Source: Rhodopirellula islandica (lineage in GTDB: Bacteria; Planctomycetota; Planctomycetia; Pirellulales; Pirellulaceae). Taken from it: 64,000 bases of DNA. Location of the stretch: the NCBI RefSeq assembly GCF_001027925.1, contig NZ_LECT01000019.1, forward strand, positions 1 to 64,000. Direction: 5' to 3'. The translations under genes were made by a program, and so were the position numbers. Of the stretch, positions 37,801 to 46,547 are shown one piece after another. The notes beneath the pieces were generated by a model. That model was not told where the DNA came from. It searched no databases and was given only the letters and a program-made list of their open reading frames with translations. The stretch's first letter is position 1, and every line of letters begins with the position of its first letter.

Positions 37801-39330
37801 ATGTCGTTGAGACTGGGCGGGTTGTTGTGTGGCATCGTGATGATGGTCGGTGGCACGGTGCTGGGGCAAAGTGTCTCTGGCGACGAGCCCGATCGTCCCA
37901 ATGTCATCTTGGTGATGGCGGACGACTTGGGGTACGCGCAGACGGGATACTTTGAACACCCCTTGCTGAAGACACCTGAACTGGATCGCTTGGCAGCGGG
38001 TGGTTTGCGTCTGGATCGGTTCTACGCGGCCTCCGCAGTTTGCTCGCCAACCCGAGCGAGCGTGCTGACGGGGCGTTCGCCCGAGCGGACCGGTGTGCCT
38101 TCGCATGGTCACGCACTGCGACATCAGGAACGATCCATCGCAACTGCGATTCGGAAGGCGGGCTATGTCACCGGGCACTTTGGAAAGTGGCATCTCAATG
38201 GTCTTCGCGGACCGGGAGTTCCGATCCTAGGCGAGGATCGCTTTCATCCCGGTCGGTTTGGGTTTGATGTGTGGTTGTCGGTGACCAACTTCTTTGATCG
38301 CAACCCCTTGATGAGTCGGCGTGGCAAGTTTGAAGCCTTCGAAGGCGACTCGTCCGAAGTGATCGTGGAAGAAGCGTTGGATTTCGCGTCTCGATCGGCG
38401 CGGTCTCAGCAACCGTTTTTCGCGGTGGTTTGGTATGGCACCCCGCACAGTCCGTTTGTGGCATCCGATGAAGACATGCAAGCATTGGTCGATGCGGGCA
38501 AGGACGAAGATGAAAAGGCAAGGTTGCAGCAGATCATCGATGGCATGGATGAAGACTCTCGCAATCACTATGGCGAATTGGTGGCCATGGATCGGAGTTT
38601 GGGAACTCTGAGAGCAGGTTTGGAACGGTTGCGTGTGCTGGACAACACGTTGATTTGGTTCTGCAGTGACAACGGTGGTTTGCCAGGCATCGAACCATCG
38701 ACAACGGCTCCGCTGCGAGGTCACAAGTCACAGCTCTACGAGGGTGGGCTGCGCGTGCCGTGTGTGTTGCACTGGCCCGATCAGATTCAGGCTGGACGCG
38801 TCAGTCGGGTTCCAGCTTGTGCGACCGATATTGCGCCGACGCTGGTGGATTTGCTGGGATTGCCCGGTGACTCACTGACCACGCCTGTCGATGGAATCAG
38901 TTTGCTGCCAGTGATTCAGGGCGATGGCGAGACCGCCATGGTTCGTCGCGAAAAGCCGATCGGGTTTCGGTTTCGTGGCAAGTCAGCCGTGGTCGACAAC
39001 CAGTGGAAGCTGATTCGCGAAACGCGAAAGCAGAAGGGGAAATCGGTGGTCAGCGAACAGTTGTATCAACTGGACGACGATGTCAGCGAAAGCAAAGACG
39101 TGACCGGAGACTACCCAGAAATTGCGTCGCGATTGAGCGAGTGGTTGGCGGAATGGAACGCGTCGGTCGATGACAGCGTGGCGGGGTTGGACTATCCCGA
39201 GCAACGTGTCGACCCGGACCATCCGGAATCGAAGTACTGGTCCAGCGATTCGCGATACGAAGCGTTCTTCGAAGAGTGGCGTGGACGCCCAGAGTATCAA
39301 TCGTTCTTGAAGACTCGTTTGGCAAAGTGA
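37801..39330 (+). CDS. Sulfatase (arylsulfatase type, exported)
   Basis: Hydrolyses sulfate esters, probably on algal polysaccharides, outside the cytoplasm. 509 residues from ATG 37801 (GGGAG upstream), with signal segment LGGLLCGIVMMVGGTVLGQS. The formylglycine motif is CSPTRASVLTGR, so Cys is converted by an anaerobic or aerobic maturase. NVILVMADDLGYAQ holds the metal-binding Asp pair, and GKWHLNG and SDNGG are the other conserved blocks. Downstream are two palindromic repeat elements, not a partner gene. Confidence 0.95.
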   Translation: MSLRLGGLLCGIVMMVGGTVLGQSVSGDEPDRPNVILVMADDLGYAQTGYFEHPLLKTPELDRLAAGGLRLDRFYAASAVCSPTRASVLTGRSPERTGVPSHGHALRHQERSIATAIRKAGYVTGHFGKWHLNGLRGPGVPILGEDRFHPGRFGFDVWLSVTNFFDRNPLMSRRGKFEAFEGDSSEVIVEEALDFASRSARSQQPFFAVVWYGTPHSPFVASDEDMQALVDAGKDEDEKARLQQIIDGMDEDSRNHYGELVAMDRSLGTLRAGLERLRVLDNTLIWFCSDNGGLPGIEPSTTAPLRGHKSQLYEGGLRVPCVLHWPDQIQAGRVSRVPACATDIAPTLVDLLGLPGDSLTTPVDGISLLPVIQGDGETAMVRREKPIGFRFRGKSAVVDNQWKLIRETRKQKGKSVVSEQLYQLDDDVSESKDVTGDYPEIASRLSEWLAEWNASVDDSVAGLDYPEQRVDPDHPESKYWSSDSRYEAFFEEWRGRPEYQSFLKTRLAK

Positions 39331-39331
39331 G

Positions 39332-39462
39332 CTAGTGGTCCGTCAAAGTTAAAAGTTAGGGTTGATCGTAGTGGGCGAGGCCACGAGTCCTTGGATTTTA
39401 CGCCAGTTCAGGACTCGTGGCCTCGTCCACTACCCTAAAAACAAGTCCTGACAGACCACTAG
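39332..39462. repeat. 131-bp palindromic element (CTAGTGGTC ends)
   Basis: Outer arms CTAGTGGTCCGTCA (39332-39345) and TGACAGACCACTAG (39449-39462) are inverted with one mismatch in 14. Inner arms at 39368-39390 and 39411-39433 match in 22 of 23 positions (ACGAGGCCACGAGTCC region). About 20 bp separate the inner arms. The element can fold into one long hairpin, carries no gene, and shares its last two bases with the next element. Confidence 0.85.
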
Positions 39463-39571
39463 CAACGCGTGAACAACAAGTGACGATGTTAGCGGTGTGG
39501 CGCAAGCCGCCCGGTGAGGAACCGGAGGGCTCGCGCCCTTCCGCTACGTCACTTGTTGTTCACGTGGTGCT
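39461..39571 (+). repeat. 111-bp near-palindromic element, copy A
   Basis: The 24-bp terminal arms (39461-39484 and 39548-39571) match in 22 of 24 positions when inverted, with a perfect 16-bp core GTGAACAACAAGTGAC / GTCACTTGTTGTTCAC. The 63-bp interior is itself partly self-complementary (TAGCGG...CCGCTA). A second copy in opposite orientation lies at 46011-46121 and differs at 4 of 111 positions. No open frame of note. Confidence 0.92.
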
Positions 39572-39593
39572 TAACTGCGTGACAAGCGAAGAC

Positions 39594-41024
39594 TCACTCC
39601 ACCACGTAAATCTGCGAGGTCAATGACAGCGGGAAGGTGCCGCCCGTTTCGTACTGTGCCTCCATGAAGGCTGCCTCGGCCCCGGAGCTTGGCGAATTGA
39701 CTTGCGCACTCCAGATCCCATTCTCATCCGTCTTCAAGGGCGTCGACTTCCAATGCGAGGATCGGAGGTCACGTGTGGGCGAGGTCGTGGTCCAAACCAT
39801 CACCTTGGTCGGGGTTTGATCACTCGTCGCAATGATTTTCACCCCCTCAGGCGTCGGTTCCGAACGCGTCTTCCAATCCGGCATGACGTTGTCTTGGCAG
39901 ACCGATCGATGCAGCGCCGAAACGCCCCCCACCATTCTTGAGATGTCATTCAACCCGTGCCCATTGTTCGGAATGTTCAGCAGCCACTTGGAACCGGGCA
40001 GATCGTCGAAGTAATGCTGCGCTGAATCGGCAGGCCAATAGGGATCATTGCTTCCCAGCAACACGAGCTTCGGCATCTCCAAGGCCGCCCGGTGCTCATA
40101 GGGATCCACCAGTTGCATCAACGTTTTCCCGCTTGGCGTGGACATCATTTCCTGAAGACCACGCTGCGTGTAGTCCTTGATCTGAGGCGAGTAGGCTCCC
40201 CAAGCTTCGATCTGGTGTTTCATTTGCACATTCAGATTCAACATGTCGATGACCATCGGGGCGATCGCCTTGACGCGCGGGTCCGTCGCACCCACCAAGT
40301 AAGTCGTCCATCCACGTTTGCTCGCTCCGGTCACCGTGAATCCATCCAGCGATAAACCCCATTCCTCCTTGGTTGCTCCGACGACCGCGTCCATGGCCGC
40401 CGAAGCGGAACGCGCCATCACCGGCAACAACGGCCACTCGGGATCTTTCGTTTCGAAAAACTTTTGAAAGGTGAGCGAAATCAAAGCGTCTTCCTTCAGC
40501 CCATCAAACATCGGTTGAAAGGGAACCTGTTTCAGGATCGCAACCGGTGTCTTCACCTCCATCGCCAAACTCGCCAGCACAACCGCCTCGCGAGGCACTT
40601 TGACTTCCATCGGACCATCTGATCCCCACTCGGATTTCCAAGACCCACCGCTGATCAGCATCAACGCGTTGGATTCATTCGGATCCACCTCCGGCGGATT
40701 CAAAATGTACAGTTCGTGTTGCCAAGGAACTCCTTGCCACGCTTGGGAGACCAGATGCACCACGACGTAGTCGCACCCACCGAAGTTCCCACGATCACGG
40801 ATCTCCCAGCGAAAATGCTCGTCTCGACTCAACACCATCTCAGCCAAACGCTGGGTTGCTTCGGCGCTGGAGACATCTGTTTCCAACGGCCGAAGGTCCT
40901 CCGCGCGAAGATTCGAAACGGTCACCGAAAAGGTCCCCAGCAACAGCAATAAACCGGACGTCCATCTTTTTCCAAACACGGGGCGAGACTCAAACAGTTC
41001 AAGGATTCCATGCGAACCGGCCAT
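39594..41024 (-). CDS. PhoPQ-activated pathogenicity-related (PqaA-type) protein
   Basis: Exported alpha/beta-hydrolase-fold protein of the PhoPQ_related family, 476 residues. A signal segment (SGLLLLLGTFSVTVSNLRA) is followed by WQHELYILNPP, LISGGSW, the nucleophile-like elbow GASKRGW, PMVIDMLN and LLGSNDPYWPADSAQHYFDDLPG with GHG as probable His. The family was named from Salmonella; the function in planctomycetes is not known. It begins 108-210 bp from the divergent YjbQ gene. Confidence 0.92.
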   Translation of the reverse strand: MAGSHGILELFESRPVFGKRWTSGLLLLLGTFSVTVSNLRAEDLRPLETDVSSAEATQRLAEMVLSRDEHFRWEIRDRGNFGGCDYVVVHLVSQAWQGVPWQHELYILNPPEVDPNESNALMLISGGSWKSEWGSDGPMEVKVPREAVVLASLAMEVKTPVAILKQVPFQPMFDGLKEDALISLTFQKFFETKDPEWPLLPVMARSASAAMDAVVGATKEEWGLSLDGFTVTGASKRGWTTYLVGATDPRVKAIAPMVIDMLNLNVQMKHQIEAWGAYSPQIKDYTQRGLQEMMSTPSGKTLMQLVDPYEHRAALEMPKLVLLGSNDPYWPADSAQHYFDDLPGSKWLLNIPNNGHGLNDISRMVGGVSALHRSVCQDNVMPDWKTRSEPTPEGVKIIATSDQTPTKVMVWTTTSPTRDLRSSHWKSTPLKTDENGIWSAQVNSPSSGAEAAFMEAQYETGGTFPLSLTSQIYVVE

Positions 41025-41234
41025 CGCGATGGCTGGCGCTGCATGGTGAAGTTGGTTGCAAAGACACGTCCACGCGAAAGCAACGAATCGCGTTCCGGAC
41101 CATCATCTCATAAAATCATCGGTGAAACATGAATGTCATTCGGAACCCGCAACCATTTCGCGAACGTCGTGTCGCGAATTGAGTTCGCCTTCCTCAGAAA
41201 CCTTTGCCCCTCGAACGATGCCCGGAGTCCAACG

Positions 41235-41669
41235 TTGAAGTCATTGACCAAAGAACTGTGGATGGAAATCCCCAACCGTCGCGGAATTGTTTCGATCCAC
41301 CGGGAAGTCGACCAACTGGTTCGAGAGAGCGGCATCCAAGAAGGCATGGTGTTGGTCAACGCCATGCACATCACCGCCAGCGTCTTCATCAACGACAATG
41401 AATCCGGATTGCACGCTGACTATGAACGTTGGCTTGAGGAACTGGTTCCATTCAACGCCGGCACGGAGCCGGCCTCGGGCGGCTACCTGCACAATCGAAC
41501 GGGCGAAGACAACGCCGACGCACACCACAAGCGCCAGATCATGGGACGCGAGGTTGTCGTGGCAATCACCGAAGGCGAGCTTCACCTCGGGCCTTGGGAG
41601 CACATCTTCTACTACGAGTTTGATGGGCGACGTCGAAAGCGAATCCTCGTCAAAATCATCGGTGAGTAA
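41235..41669 (+). CDS. yjbQ: YjbQ/UPF0047 family protein
   Basis: Small cytoplasmic protein of the YjbQ family, reported to have weak thiamine-phosphate synthase activity. The TTG at 41235 gives 144 residues, the normal family length, and has GGAG seven bases upstream; an ATG at 41133 would add 34 residues unlike the family. Blocks seen are [60 protein letters not shown] and [13 protein letters not shown] with conserved histidines. It faces fusA across a shared hairpin terminator. Confidence 0.9.
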
Positions 41670-41726
41670 CCGTTTGGTCGCCACTCCCGATCGGGAACGC
41701 AAAAAGCAGCGACTGATCTCGCGCAC

Positions 41727-41762
41727 AAAAAAACCACGCAACGTGAGTTGCGTGGTTTTCGG
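41727..41762. terminator. Bidirectional terminator between yjbQ and fusA
   Basis: A perfect 13-bp stem, AAAACCACGCAAC (41730-41742) with GTTGCGTGGTTTT (41747-41759), has a four-base loop. It ends in a T-run on the plus strand and is preceded by an A-run, which serves as the T-run for fusA on the minus strand. Confidence 0.9.
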
Positions 41763-41785
41763 TTCATTTGAACTGGCAGGGTGGC

Positions 41786-43873
41786 TTAGCGAGCGCCGGC
41801 CAATTCTTCTTTCTTGCGTTCCGCAATGATCTCTTCTTGGATGTTCGACGGGGTCTGACGGTAGGCCGCCAATTCCATCGTGAACGTTCCTTGACCTTGA
41901 GTCATGCTGCGAAGGTCAGTGGCGTAACCAAAGGTTTCTGCCAAAGGAACTTCTGCACGGATGACGGTCATGCCTTCGTTGGTATCGTTGCTGGTCATCA
42001 GACCACGACGACGAATCACGTCACCAGTCACGGTTCCTTGGAAGTCTTCTGGCACTTCGATTTCCACGCTCATGATCGGCTCGAGCAACTTCGGAGCAGC
42101 TTGCTTGAAGTACTCGCGGAAGCAACCTTGAGCAGCCGTGTAAAAGGCTTTTTCGCTGGAGTCAACATCGTGGTAGCTACCGTCGAGCAGCTCGATGCGG
42201 GTTCCCACGACGGGATACTCAGCGATTGGGCCTTTCCCCAGGATATCGCGGAAGCCTTTTTCAACAGCCGGGATGTACTGCTTTGGAATCCGTCCACCAA
42301 CGACCTTTTCTTCGAACTCGAAGCTGTCTTCGCTTTCCGATTCGATCGGGATCAGCTTGCCAACGATGTGAGCGTACTGACCTGAACCACCGGTTTGCTT
42401 CTTGTGCTTGTAGTTGAAGTCGACTTCTTTGGTCGGGCTTTCGCGGTAAGAAACCTTGGGAGCACCGACTTCGATTTCGACGCCGTATTCACGACGAATG
42501 CGTTCGATGTAGATTTCCAGGTGCAACTCACCCATGCCCGAGATCAAGATCTCGTTGGTTTCTTCATCGGTGTAAACGCTGAACGTTGGGTCTTCCTTGC
42601 GGAAGCGTTGCAACGCCTTGCTCATCTTGTCGCCATCGCCACGGTTGAGTGGGTTGACGGCGATCTTGATAACGGGCTCTGGCACGAACATCGATTCCAA
42701 CGTCGCGTAATCGCGCTCGCTGCAATAAGTGTCCCCGGAGGCACAGTCGATGCCCATCACGGCGATGATGTCGCCGGCGCTGGCTTCGTCAATTTCCTCT
42801 CGTTTTTCACTGTGCATTCGCACGATCCGGCTGAACCGTTCTTTCTTGGTCGAACGTTGGTTCGTGTAGGCCTCGCCCTTCTTGATCGTGCCTTGGTAGA
42901 TACGCATGAAGGTCAACTGACCAAACGGATCTTCGGCGATCTTGAAGGCCATTCCGACGAAAGGCTTTTCCGGATCGGGAGCCAATTCGATCTTCTTGTC
43001 TTCGTCGGAAGGGTCGCGACCGTAAATTTCACGATCCAGCGGGCTGGGCAAGTACTCGGTGACGGCGTCGAGCAAGGGCTGAACACCTTTGTTCTTGTAC
43101 GCACTGCCCATGTAGACTGGGGTCGCACCGTTCAGGACGGCCTGACGCATGACCTTGTAGATCATGTCCTTGGGCACTTCTTCTTCACTGAGCAACAATT
43201 CCATCACTTCATCGCTGTAGTTGGACAACGAATCCAACATCGCGACGCGTGACTCTTCCGCTTCGTCTTTCAAGTCCGCTGGGATTTCGCCAGTGACAAC
43301 CTTTTCGCCTTGGTCGCCTTCGAACGTGTAGGCCACCATTTCGATCAGGTCGACGACGCCACGGAAGTTTTCTTCCGCACCGATTGGAATCTGAGCCAGG
43401 AAGGCATCGGCACCAAGTTTCTCGCGCAGTTGCTCAACCACGCGTCGGGGGTTGGCACCGGTGCGGTCCATCTTGTTGATGAACGCCAAGCGAGGAATTT
43501 GGTATCGCTTCATTTGACGGTCAACGGTGATCGACTGGCTTTGCACACCACCGACACTGCAAAGAACCAACACCGCACCATCGAGAACACGCAGCGAACG
43601 TTCCACTTCGACGGTGAAGTCAACGTGGCCGGGCGTGTCGATCAAGTTGATGTGATAACCCTTGTGCGTCACGCTGGTCGCGGCACTGGTGATCGTGATC
43701 CCACGTTCTTTTTCCAGTTCCATGTGATCCATCGTCGCGCCGTCACCACCACCACGAACATCTTCGATCTTGTGAATCCGACCGCTGTAAAACAGGATCC
43801 GTTCGCTCAGAGTGGTCTTGCCCGAGTCAATGTGGGCACTGATACCAATGTTTCTGATTTTCTCCAAATTCAT
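41786..43873 (-). CDS. fusA: Elongation factor G
   Basis: GTPase that drives translocation of the ribosome. 695 residues, full length. G1 reads AHIDSGKTT (most EF-Gs have AHIDAGKTT), G2 is RGITITSAA, G3 is DTPGHVDF and G4 is NKMDRTG. The remaining domains are complete to the C-terminal LAGAR. AGGTGAAG lies before the ATG. It stands alone rather than in the classical str operon, so it may be one of several fusA paralogues. I see no ribosomal genes nearby. Confidence 0.96.
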   Translation of the reverse strand: MNLEKIRNIGISAHIDSGKTTLSERILFYSGRIHKIEDVRGGGDGATMDHMELEKERGITITSAATSVTHKGYHINLIDTPGHVDFTVEVERSLRVLDGAVLVLCSVGGVQSQSITVDRQMKRYQIPRLAFINKMDRTGANPRRVVEQLREKLGADAFLAQIPIGAEENFRGVVDLIEMVAYTFEGDQGEKVVTGEIPADLKDEAEESRVAMLDSLSNYSDEVMELLLSEEEVPKDMIYKVMRQAVLNGATPVYMGSAYKNKGVQPLLDAVTEYLPSPLDREIYGRDPSDEDKKIELAPDPEKPFVGMAFKIAEDPFGQLTFMRIYQGTIKKGEAYTNQRSTKKERFSRIVRMHSEKREEIDEASAGDIIAVMGIDCASGDTYCSERDYATLESMFVPEPVIKIAVNPLNRGDGDKMSKALQRFRKEDPTFSVYTDEETNEILISGMGELHLEIYIERIRREYGVEIEVGAPKVSYRESPTKEVDFNYKHKKQTGGSGQYAHIVGKLIPIESESEDSFEFEEKVVGGRIPKQYIPAVEKGFRDILGKGPIAEYPVVGTRIELLDGSYHDVDSSEKAFYTAAQGCFREYFKQAAPKLLEPIMSVEIEVPEDFQGTVTGDVIRRRGLMTSNDTNEGMTVIRAEVPLAETFGYATDLRSMTQGQGTFTMELAAYRQTPSNIQEEIIAERKKEELAGAR

Positions 43874-44174
43874 AATACTTCACCTAAGCGCGACCAATGC
43901 GGCGGTTCCAAGCACGCCCGTCGACACCACTGACATGGATGTCGCAGAAATTCCGGGTGGATTTGGAGGGTGGCCGACGAATCGTCAAAAATTGTTGGGG
44001 GGTGTAGACTGGCAATACCGGGAATCGCCCGGACATCCGTTTCGAATCTCGCCAAGAAATCGAACGGAAATATCGCAAAGGTGGCCCCGATCGGGAACCC
44101 CAAAACGAATCAGGCGCAATCTTTGCTCGTCTTTGCGTACGGATCTTCCCTGACATTGGATTTTTGAAACGATT
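43874..44174. other. Divergent intergenic region (fusA / purine nucleoside phosphorylase)
   Basis: 300 bp between two divergent genes, which should contain both promoters. I cannot pick out a convincing -10/-35 pair, and I see no RNA gene or repeat. Confidence 0.4.
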
Positions 44175-45074
44175 TTGCCCGCCAACTTCAACCATTCCGC
44201 CGTCCCCCACTCGCCTCCCGATTTCTCCGAATCGCTGGCGGCTCTGCGAGCGAAATCCCCGGTTCTGACTGAATCTTCTAAACCGCCCCTGGGAGTCGTG
44301 CTGGGCAGCGGATTGGGGGGACTCGCCGATGCGATCGAATCCCCCACTGTCATCCCCTACGGCGAGATTCCAGGGCTGGCCGCGTCCACTGCTGCCGGGC
44401 ATCGAGGCGAATTCATTGTGGGGCACTTGGCGTCGCGGCCAATCATCGCGATGGCCGGCCGACTGCACGTTTACGAGGGACACTCGCTGCCAGACGTCAC
44501 TCGGCCCGTCGCTCTGATGGCGGGCATCGGAATCAGCGAACTGGTCGTCAGCTGTGCGGCAGGCGGGCTGAATCCCGGTTTTTCAGTCGGCGATCTCGTC
44601 CTGCTCGACGAACACAGCAGTTGGTTGGATGGCAAACTGGGAGCACCGCCGACCCTGTTTCAGGCGGCCGAATGCCCGGCGCCCGAACAAGCCTCCGCGA
44701 CGGGTTGGTTCCGCCGACACCTGAGCACCTGCGATCCACAACTGGATCAAATCGCTCACCAAACCGCTCGCAAACACGGGTTCCGACTTCGCCGCGGGAT
44801 GTACCTGGCCGTCAGCGGGCCGAACTACGAAACGCGGGCCGAGTGCCGGATGATGCGGGGCCTGGGAGCGGACTTGGTCGGCATGAGCACCGTCCCAGAG
44901 ATCCTGTGTGCCTCCTCGGCGGGCGTTCGTACACTGGGAATTTCAGTCGTCACCAACCTCGCGCTGCCTGACGCCCCGGTGACCGCGGATCACGCGGATG
45001 TCTTGGAGGTGTGCGAGCGGGCCGCCAACCGGTTACAACAAATCGTCCGAGCGATTGCCACCCATGGAGCGTGA
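44175..45074 (+). CDS. Purine nucleoside phosphorylase
   Basis: Cleaves purine nucleosides with phosphate, family of PNP/MTAP trimers; cytoplasmic. 299 residues from a TTG at 44175; no ATG lies before the conserved part, so a TTG or another non-ATG start is needed. Blocks: LGVVLGSGLGGLAD (phosphate loop), AGRLHVYEGHSL, SCAAGGLNPGFSVGDLVLL, AVSGPNYETRAECRMMRGLGADLVGMSTVPEI and the final VTNLALP. The N in NLALP is a base-contact residue of inosine/guanosine types. It overlaps the next gene by 11 bases. Confidence 0.9.
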   Translation: MPANFNHSAVPHSPPDFSESLAALRAKSPVLTESSKPPLGVVLGSGLGGLADAIESPTVIPYGEIPGLAASTAAGHRGEFIVGHLASRPIIAMAGRLHVYEGHSLPDVTRPVALMAGIGISELVVSCAAGGLNPGFSVGDLVLLDEHSSWLDGKLGAPPTLFQAAECPAPEQASATGWFRRHLSTCDPQLDQIAHQTARKHGFRLRRGMYLAVSGPNYETRAECRMMRGLGADLVGMSTVPEILCASSAGVRTLGISVVTNLALPDAPVTADHADVLEVCERAANRLQQIVRAIATHGA

Positions 45075-45807
45075 CGTGACGAAGGAACCCCATCAGCCCG
45101 ATCATTCTTGGGACATTTCCAACCTGTCCGATGCCGAATTGCGATCGGCCATGCAATCGATTCCCTGTCAAACCGACCCAGAGGCTCCCGCGCCACTGGT
45201 CGAGTTGACCGGCCTGCATGGCCAGCACTCTGCCATGATGCGTTGCGAAACGCCGCTGCGTTTCCAGGCCGCTGGCGACCTCGGTGACTACGCGTTCGCG
45301 TTTTGTCGCGATGCGGACGTTCGCCTGGACGGCAACGTCGGCCACGGCGCAGGCGACGGAATGAGACGCGGTGTGGTCCTGATCACTGGCAATGCGGGCT
45401 GCGGATTGGGATCGGCGATGACCGGCGGAACCCTGGCCGTCTACGGCTCGGCAGGCGACCGCGTCGGTGCGGCAATGCGTGGCGGCAGCATCTTTGTTCG
45501 TGGAAGCGTCGGCGATGACACCGGTGCCGGAGCCCTGGGCGGCACGATTGTGGTCGGGGGAGACGCGGGCAAACGACTGGGCGATGGACTGAACAACGTG
45601 ACCGTTTTCCTGCGTGGCAAGGCGGAATCCTTGGCCCCCGGTGTGATCGAGGCTCCCCTGAGAAAGCGTGAGGAGGTCCGCCTGGGATTGCTGCTGATGG
45701 GAGCCTCGATTCGCGGCTCAGCCTCCGAGTTTCGACGCATCATTCCCCAAGCACGCCTGGACGCCGAAGAAGCAGGTGCCGGTGAAATCCGCCCGAACTG
45801 GCGCTAG
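45064..45807 (+). CDS. Stand-alone GXGXG-domain protein (GltB C-terminal / FwdC-like)
   Basis: 247 residues. After a polar N-terminal 55 residues it is almost entirely a GXGXG right-handed beta-helix, with turns such as GNVGHGAGDGMRRGVVLITG, GNAGCGLGSAMTGGTLAVYG, GSAGDRVGAAMRGGSIFVRG and GSVGDDTGAGALGGTIVVGG. This is the fold of the glutamate synthase large-subunit C-terminus and of formylmethanofuran dehydrogenase subunit C. Planctomycetes carry C1 genes of the methanopterin type, so FhcC is possible, but no other C1 gene is adjacent. ATG 45064 overlaps the phosphorylase end, suggesting translational coupling. Function uncertain. Confidence 0.75.
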   Translation: MERDVTKEPHQPDHSWDISNLSDAELRSAMQSIPCQTDPEAPAPLVELTGLHGQHSAMMRCETPLRFQAAGDLGDYAFAFCRDADVRLDGNVGHGAGDGMRRGVVLITGNAGCGLGSAMTGGTLAVYGSAGDRVGAAMRGGSIFVRGSVGDDTGAGALGGTIVVGGDAGKRLGDGLNNVTVFLRGKAESLAPGVIEAPLRKREEVRLGLLLMGASIRGSASEFRRIIPQARLDAEEAGAGEIRPNWR

Positions 45808-45960
45808 AAGCGGCCCCGCTCTCACTCTGGTTAGCCCGATTTCGCCCCCCATCAAACCGTAGCCGGAGTCGCCAGACTTCGGTCTCCTGCAAACCAGCCT
45901 GTTGATAATGGCACAAGGTGCCAGCCACATTCCAAGCCCCTCACAACGCCTTAATAACCC

Positions 45961-45985
45961 CGCCCGCGCAGAGGTCGTGCAGCTT
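45961..45985 (-). repeat. CTGCACGACCTC repeat, reverse copy
   Basis: Read on the minus strand this is AGCTGCACGACCTCTGCGCG followed by GGCGGGG, matching the first 10.4-kb copy over about 25 bases. It lies 25 bp before the palindromic element copy B. Confidence 0.7.
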
Positions 45986-46010
45986 TTAAGCATCGTGCCA
46001 GTAGCGCCTT

Positions 46011-46121
46011 AGCACCACATGAACAACAAGTGACGTAGCGGAAGGGCGCGAGCCCTCCGGTTCCTCACCGAGCGACTTGCGCCACACCGCTAACATCGTC
46101 GCTTGTTGTTCACGCGTTGCT
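46011..46121 (-). repeat. 111-bp near-palindromic element, copy B
   Basis: Reverse-complemented, this copy matches 39461-39571 at 107 of 111 positions. Its ends are AGCACCACATGAACAACAAG and CTTGTTGTTCACGCGTTGCT. Both differences in the inner arms break pairing rather than compensate, so the family similarity reflects copying, not just a common fold. It is intergenic, after the GXGXG gene. Confidence 0.92.
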
Positions 46122-46318
46122 TAAGAACCCCGCCCGACGAAGTTGGGAGGGGTCGGAAAACGAGCGTTCAGCGAGATTTCCGGGGGAGGGCCATCCGCGC
46201 CGTTTCCCCTGCTCAGCCTCCTCCCTCGCGTACGCCTGAACGGCGTCGCTCCCCCCCAAACTTCGTTTCAGGAGAGGTGTTCCAATGCAGAAACCCGCCA
46301 AAACGCGGTCTCAGTAAA

Positions 46319-46346
46319 CGGCACGACCTCTGCGCGAACAGGGGGC
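46319..46346 (+). repeat. CTGCACGACCTC repeat, variant copy
   Basis: Reads GGCACGACCTCTGCGCGAAC then AGGGGGCC, with one change in the core (CGGCACGACCTC). A shorter partial copy (CTGCACGACCTCGGAAGCGG) lies at 46511-46530. Confidence 0.6.
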
Positions 46347-46547
46347 CTGAATGTCCTTTCAGAGTAGAACATTTGTCCCAAGATGTTTGCGTGACGGGTT
46401 GGTTTCGTCGAGCAGTGTGACGCGAACGTTTGAAAGGGGACTTGGGTGCGATGAGGCTTGGCGATGGAAGGCTGCCCGACGGAACAGTTGAGGACAACTG
46501 TTCTACTCGGCTGCACGACCTCGGAAGCGGATTGGAAAACGATTCCC

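What the first reader, a model, noticed from the sequence alone, without database searches (positions are those of the whole stretch)
39461..46121. Two inverted copies of a 111-bp near-palindrome with 16-bp perfect arms
Copies at 39461-39571 and 46011-46121 match at 107/111 positions after inversion, and each copy is itself a near-perfect hairpin (arms GTGAACAACAAGTGAC). They carry no gene. The four differences are unpaired singles, so identity comes from duplication. This looks like a MITE or REP-like mobile element. The facing copies also flank a 6.4-kb block (pqaA-like, yjbQ, fusA, PNP, GXGXG) that could invert by recombination.
Basis: partly seen in the sequence, partly recalled or inferred. 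Interest (0 to 1): 0.8.

Follow-up and report, generated by a model that had tools for sequence, protein, structure and literature searches.

The report
Miniature transposon with a nested palindrome
The two mirror-image 111-bp repeats are copies of a small, gene-less jumping element with at least 21 near-complete copies in this Rhodopirellula-like genome, which duplicates three bases where it lands and carries another kind of palindromic repeat in its centre.

Summary
Each copy is a 109-bp element (39462-39570; 46012-46120), one of 21 near-complete copies in the genome (lower bound), with full-length copies in 4 of 12 congeners and no match in 27 genomes outside the genus. It is a MITE: flanks carry a 3-bp TWA duplication (20 of 30 insertions identical, 10.7 expected by shuffling), and two loci show the empty site with a single TAA or TTA. 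Covariation gives no support for an RNA gene.

TNA duplications point to the IS1031 group of IS5. Such elements (919-957 bp, five with TWA duplications) exist in congeners; none was found in this genome. Their ends resemble those of a sister MITE, family B (shuffle p 0.0009 and 0.006), but not significantly those of this element (0.13, 0.28), so the transposase link is indirect.

The centre is a REP-like doublet found also between other arms and in tandem arrays.

The 6.4-kb block is not inverted in five congeners. The left copy instead lies at a synteny break: element-made rearrangement, or a draft misjoin.

The parts
39462..39570 (+). left copy of the 109-bp MITE (family A)
39459..39461 (.). 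left 3-bp flank, CTA (not identical to the right one); shared with the CTAG duplicate of the neighbouring hairpin
39571..39573 (.). right 3-bp flank, TTA
39490..39546 (+). REP-like doublet core TAGCGG...CCGCTA of the left copy
46012..46120 (-). right copy of the 109-bp MITE, opposite orientation
46009..46011 (.). target duplicate TTA (TAA in the element's orientation)
46121..46123 (.). target duplicate TTA (TAA in the element's orientation)
46036..46092 (-). REP-like doublet core of the right copy
39332..39462 (.). another repeated hairpin (123 bp between CTAG duplicates) abutting the left copy; a neighbour, not part of the MITE

Best explanation
Each copy is a 109-bp non-autonomous DNA transposon (MITE) moved by a transposase supplied in trans, which cuts at a TWA target (weak wider consensus GC-TWA-GC) and duplicates those 3 bp. 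Shown: family, copy number, ends, 3-bp duplication, empty sites at two loci. Inferred: the transposase is of the IS1031 group of the IS5 family, encoded by full-length ISs seen in sister species and not found in this genome. The centre is a REP-like doublet that rides inside the MITE; in the sister family B a related centre lies between different arms with TNA duplications. 14 of the 15 copies whose neighbours could be classed have the 3' end of at least one gene beside them, where insertion is either tolerated or favoured.
For: 21 matches covering at least 107 of 126 query bases in the genome (40 of 73 candidates scored, so a lower bound); full-length copies in 4 of 12 congeners, no match at E 1e-5 in 27 genomes of other genera. 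Of 37 full-length insertions among the fetched loci, 7 with like flanks were dropped; of the other 30, 20 have identical 3-bp flanks (12 TTA, 8 TAA) against 10.7 on average in 5000 shuffles, none of which reached 20; lengths 1, 2 and 4-12 gave no excess. Empty sites: locus L020 filled in own and G007, empty with one TAA in G005 and G002; G004 has other DNA there. Locus L004 filled in own, empty with one TTA in G002 and G004; G007 not alignable beyond the gene end. Family B: 6 of 13 flank pairs match against 1.9 expected, p 0.005; five of the six are TNA, one is TAG. Five of ten PF13340 loci in congeners gave a clear pair of ends GA[AG]CCTATCCG, 919-957 bp apart, each with TAA/TAA or TTA/TTA; four of these proteins all match NCBIfam IS5 family NF033580. 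The IS1031 subgroup is reported to prefer TNA, to duplicate 3 bp and, in ISLrh, to begin GAACCTGTC (PMC12016507, one passage). Family B ends match those IS ends in up to 12 of 16 positions, p(best match) 0.0009 and 0.006 for its two ends.
Against: No IS1031-type transposase was found in this genome or in G002, though both carry the element. This element's own ends do not match the IS ends significantly (p of best match 0.28 left, 0.13 right; of mean match 0.21, 0.08), and the ten IS ends compared come from related elements. Family B ends at up to 1 mismatch form pairs only at MITE distance in 5 genomes; one facing pair 3.1 kb apart in G002 lies beside and inside ordinary genes. 10 of 30 copies lack identical flanks, the left window copy among them.
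Confidence: 0.77

Rival explanations
1. The whole unit is a REPIN/BIME spread by a REP-associated tyrosine transposase (RAYT, Y1 type); the arms are only flanking DNA carried along.
For: The core halves look like REPs (TAG plus an imperfect GC hairpin), occur as inverted doublets and in tandem arrays in G009 (449 half-motif hits; 20 loci read). RAYT-like genes exist in the genus. REP dimers inside longer palindromes are on record (PMC3733652, passage).
Against: The unit duplicates its target, which Y1 transposition does not do (recalled). The RAYT unit examined (L178, L179, L181, L191) ends in its own inverted repeats, about AAAAGGGGACGGGGGTC, not in this REP. Matches to that RAYT do not track REP counts: G009 has only partial or distant ones, G001 and G006 have 16 and 15 and no REP hit; other Y1 families in G009 were not searched. 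GTAG precedes 25 of 56, 13 of 42 and 8 of 58 core halves.
Confidence: 0.08
2. A conserved structured RNA or a bidirectional terminator kept for its function.
For: Very stable hairpin. Of 21 own copies, 15 could be classed by a crude codon-based gene caller: 9 convergent, 5 tandem, 1 divergent; none was flagged inside a gene.
Against: On 33 of the 37 aligned copies (28 distinct), 1 of 44 pairs has a change on both sides, shuffled mean 1.9. No Rfam match above threshold in 39200-46400. No run of T follows either window copy. Empty sites show that it comes and goes. A secondary role as terminator is not excluded.
Confidence: 0.06
3. The two facing copies act as a recombination switch that inverts the 6.4-kb block.
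For: 111 bp at 96% identity in inverted orientation. The left copy lies at a synteny break: own A-e-B and C-e-D against A-D in G002, G004, G005, G007 and C-e-B in G002.
Against: The block has the same orientation relative to its right neighbour in five congeners. The break involves a copy on another contig (C7), not the right window copy, and may be a misjoin at a repeat in a 55-contig draft.
Confidence: 0.03

Closest known systems
IS1031 group of the IS5 family (and ISs of that kind in congeners: L229, L230, L231, L235, L237)
   Same: 3-bp TNA target duplication; IS ends GAACCTATCCGG similar to family B ends
   Different: this element is 109 bp and codes for nothing; its own ends do not match those ISs significantly
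Tourist-like MITEs of eukaryotic PIF/Harbinger transposons (recalled)
   Same: TWA duplication, inverted ends, gene-less, many copies
   Different: bacterial; the centre is a REP-like doublet
REPIN / BIME (PMC3116915 and PMC3733652, passages)
   Same: inverted doublet of short GC-rich palindromes, tandem arrays
   Different: GTAG tag not conserved, no flanking RAYT found, moved with a target duplication as part of a larger unit
GTAG-15 dimers inside long palindromes in Anabaena variabilis (PMC3733652, passage)
   Same: a REP dimer nested between long palindromic arms; arms without the dimer not found
   Different: the passage read reports no target duplication and no transposase kin for the arms

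Membership tests
MITE | short, no coding capacity, terminal inverted repeats | tested here: met
   109 bp, no ORF of 100 aa within; arm helix paired in 90% of cells
MITE | multiple dispersed near-identical copies | tested here: met
   21 near-complete copies on many contigs, 4 of 12 congeners
MITE | target-site duplication | tested here: met
   TWA, 20 of 30 identical, 10.7 expected
MITE | empty sites in relatives | tested here: met
   loci L020 and L004; for L002, L005 and L009, also in the query, no comparable match across the joint was listed
MITE | ends shared with an autonomous element | tested here: inconclusive
   family B ends resemble IS1031-type ISs; this element's ends not significantly; no such IS found in own genome
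IS1031 group (IS5 family) derivative | 3-bp TNA duplication | tested here: met
   TTA or TAA for this element, also TGA for family B; rule from PMC12016507
IS1031 group (IS5 family) derivative | mobilised by such a transposase | not testable with these tools
   needs an assay
GTAG REP / REPIN (for the core) | GTAG at one end of nearly all units | tested here: not met
   25 of 56, 13 of 42, 8 of 58 halves in the fetched loci
GTAG REP / REPIN (for the core) | flanks a RAYT gene | tested here: not met
   no core motif in 10 of 11 Y1 loci of the own genome (about 1.5 kb each side, less for one); L038 has a doublet some 300 bp behind the gene, outside the repeated RAYT unit
GTAG REP / REPIN (for the core) | inverted doublets and tandem clusters | tested here: met
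   G009 loci
Rfam RNA gene | match above gathering score or compensatory changes | tested here: not met

The most novel reading that the evidence does not exclude
One REP-like doublet has been a portable core: within a single genus it lies inside at least three sets of arms (families A and B with TNA duplications; family C in G009, with ends GGGACGTCGATTG that in several loci lie in the middle of other palindromes) and in free tandem arrays. MITEs with different ends would then repeatedly form around, or swap, a common hairpin core, a 'core and shell' way of making new mobile elements.
Probability: 0.3. Interest if true: 0.6.

Novelty: new variant of a known kind. Interest (0 to 1): 0.42.

Why it matters
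It joins two classes of bacterial repeats that are usually treated apart, MITEs with a target duplication and REP-like palindromes, in one element with empty sites in sister species, and gives this genus a defined mobile marker. The left copy may mark an element-made rearrangement, which one PCR can test.

Tried and rejected
Autonomous partner in the genome: PF01609 gave 3 hits (frames of 478, 476 and 78 aa), whose ends were not analysed; PF13340 and the profile A1 gave none. Arm without core as an IS end: of 52 hits of the 19-bp arm pattern with up to 3 mismatches (reversed control 5), nearly all fall on core-bearing copies; L111/L115 carries a lone arm followed by another repeat. Family B ends as IS ends: facing pairs only at MITE distance in 5 genomes, apart from one pair 3.1 kb apart in G002 that I fetched and found to be an ordinary gene neighbourhood. 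RAYT as driver of the core: not supported. RNA covariation: my first structure string was shifted by two columns and was replaced by the right one; result negative. Rfam: two sub-threshold hits, taken as chance. Plasmid collection: no match; phage records and viral contigs were not searched. An exact 64-bp scan of genome contigs gave one record, Rhodopirellula europaea 6C; records of the own genome may be left out there. Papers: no paper in the library holds both Rhodopirellula and 'miniature inverted-repeat', or Rhodopirellula and 'repetitive extragenic palindromic'; three wider searches were seen as listings only, apart from passages of PMC3733652 and PMC2516522.

Full report
Observation. 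The two 111-bp copies exist as described, 96% complementary with 6439 nt between them, and each folds into one long hairpin far more stable than shuffled sequence (z -8.8 and -7.5 on the + strand).

Copy number and range. A DNA search of the own genome (7.43 Mb, 55 contigs) gives 21 places matched over at least 107 of the 126 query bases, both window copies among them, and further partial ones; only 40 of 73 candidates were scored. Of 40 genomes searched (own, 12 congeners, 27 from other genera) 8 match at E 1e-5, own included. The best copies of G002, G004, G005 and G007 are 97-99% identical over 114-118 bp; G011 has an 86% match over 92 bp; the listed matches of G009 and G010 cover the core only; G001, G003, G006, G008, G012 and all 27 outside genera have none. 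An exact 64-bp scan of named genomes hit Rhodopirellula europaea 6C.

It is a MITE. Aligned full-length insertions show constant ends, GCAACG and mostly GGTCC, flanked by TTA/TTA or TAA/TAA. Of 37 such insertions in the fetched loci 7 with like flanks were dropped; of the other 30, 20 have identical 3-bp flanks, against 10.7 on average when flanks are shuffled among copies and never 20 in 5000 shuffles; other lengths give no excess. Locus L020: own and G007 carry the element between two TAA; G005 and G002 have the uninterrupted site with one TAA; G004 has other DNA there. Locus L004: G002 and G004 have one TTA where own has 109 bp plus a second TTA; G007 diverges at that point. The gain is thus 109 bp plus 3 bp.

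Window copies in relatives. At the place of the right copy G002 still holds a 41-bp piece identical to it, with bases that no other aligned copy shares, next to another repeat; I infer that this insertion predates the split of the two genomes. No match to the element was found at that place in G004, G005, G007 or G011. The left copy: in G002 the pqaA side carries the element, interrupted at the arm/core TTA by a repeat of about 120 bp, but followed by a flank that in own lies on contig C7; the sulfatase side is joined, without any element, to the other C7 flank in G002, G004, G005 and G007. Own thus shows A-e-B and C-e-D where relatives show A-D and (G002) C-e-B. Copy-paste of the element within the chromosome into the A/D joint, or crossing-over between two copies, would make this; so would a misjoin at a repeat in a draft. 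The orientation of the 6.4-kb block relative to its right neighbour is the same in G002, G004, G005, G007 and G011.

The centre. Between the 24-bp arms lies TAGCGG...CCGCTA, two inverted GC-rich half-palindromes. A 26-base half motif with up to 3 mismatches has 63 hits in own, 449 in G009, 73 in G002, 51 in G005, 42 in G004, 38 in G007, 12 in G011 and 0-2 in each of the other six congeners; the reversed control has none in any of the 13 (hits are halves, so some elements count twice). The core lies in other arms: family B (GGAACCGTTCGGAATC...), with matching flanks in 6 of 13 copies, and in G009 family C (GGGACGTCGATTG...), whose outer flanks in several loci are themselves inverted repeats, as if it had landed in hairpin loops, and in tandem arrays (20 loci chosen from a capped list and read by eye). 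Family B and C arms share the stretch GGATTTCAAAAG next to the core (by eye). One own copy, L022, has a family A left end and a B-like right end (by eye).

Transposase. TNA targets with a 3-bp duplication mark the IS1031 subgroup of IS5 (PMC12016507, one passage). PF13340 has 10 hits, in G004, G007 and G011. A profile of four of these proteins adds short pieces in G005, several at contig ends, and a weak fragment in G009; own, G002 and the other six congeners have none. Five of the ten loci gave clear ends 919-957 bp apart, each with TAA or TTA duplications; L234 and L236 have other ends, L228, L232 and L233 gave none, though a later, longer stretch of the L232 place shows one such left end (L248). 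The four proteins match the IS5 family. The two ends of family B match these IS ends better than shuffles (p of best match 0.0062 and 0.0009), those of family A do not (0.28, 0.13). I therefore hold an IS1031-type transposase as likely for the kind, and the partner as unproven.

Not an RNA gene, not a RAYT element. On 28 distinct copies (33 of 37 aligned) 94.4% of pair cells form pairs, 1 pair has changes on both sides, and the shuffles do as well or better on all five measures. Rfam gives nothing above threshold. The RAYT unit examined does not end in this core, and its matches do not track the number of cores. Of 21 own copies, 15 could be classed by a crude gene caller: 9 between convergent genes, 5 tandem, 1 divergent.

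A facing pair of family B-like ends 3.1 kb apart in G002, passed over at first, was fetched and is an ordinary gene neighbourhood. Confidence in the best explanation was left at about its first value (0.78 to 0.77).

Noticed in passing
window 39332-39462: A second palindromic repeat (123 bp between CTAG duplicates) abuts the left copy; 12 further copies of 96-99% identity are listed in the own genome and others in congeners (capped list).
   Followed up: partly
L139, L115, L023, L025; also beside L003, L008, L079, L086, L087: A third short repeat, AGCAGGTC...GACCTGCT (about 120 bp), sits at TTA sites; in L139 it lies exactly at the arm/core TTA of the element, so TTA in and beside this MITE looks like a hot spot.
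   Followed up: partly
window 46120-46330 and 46342-46523: Further dispersed repeats right of the right copy, about 210 bp at 79-91% and about 180 bp at up to 94% identity.
   Followed up: no
L125, L127, L128, L130-L133 (G009): REP-cored elements with ends GGGACGTCGATTG appear to lie inside other palindromes, possibly terminators (by eye).
   Followed up: partly
L178, L179, L181, L191: A RAYT-like Y1 transposase gene in a repeated unit of about 780 bp with inverted ends AAAAGGGGACGGGGGTC.
   Followed up: partly
L018: A copy with the two outer tips exchanged (GGACCACG left, CGCGTTGC right), as if the inside had flipped.
   Followed up: no
L234, L236 (G011): IS5-like elements with different ends, CTAGGCACTGTC..., possibly with a CTAG target.
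   Followed up: no
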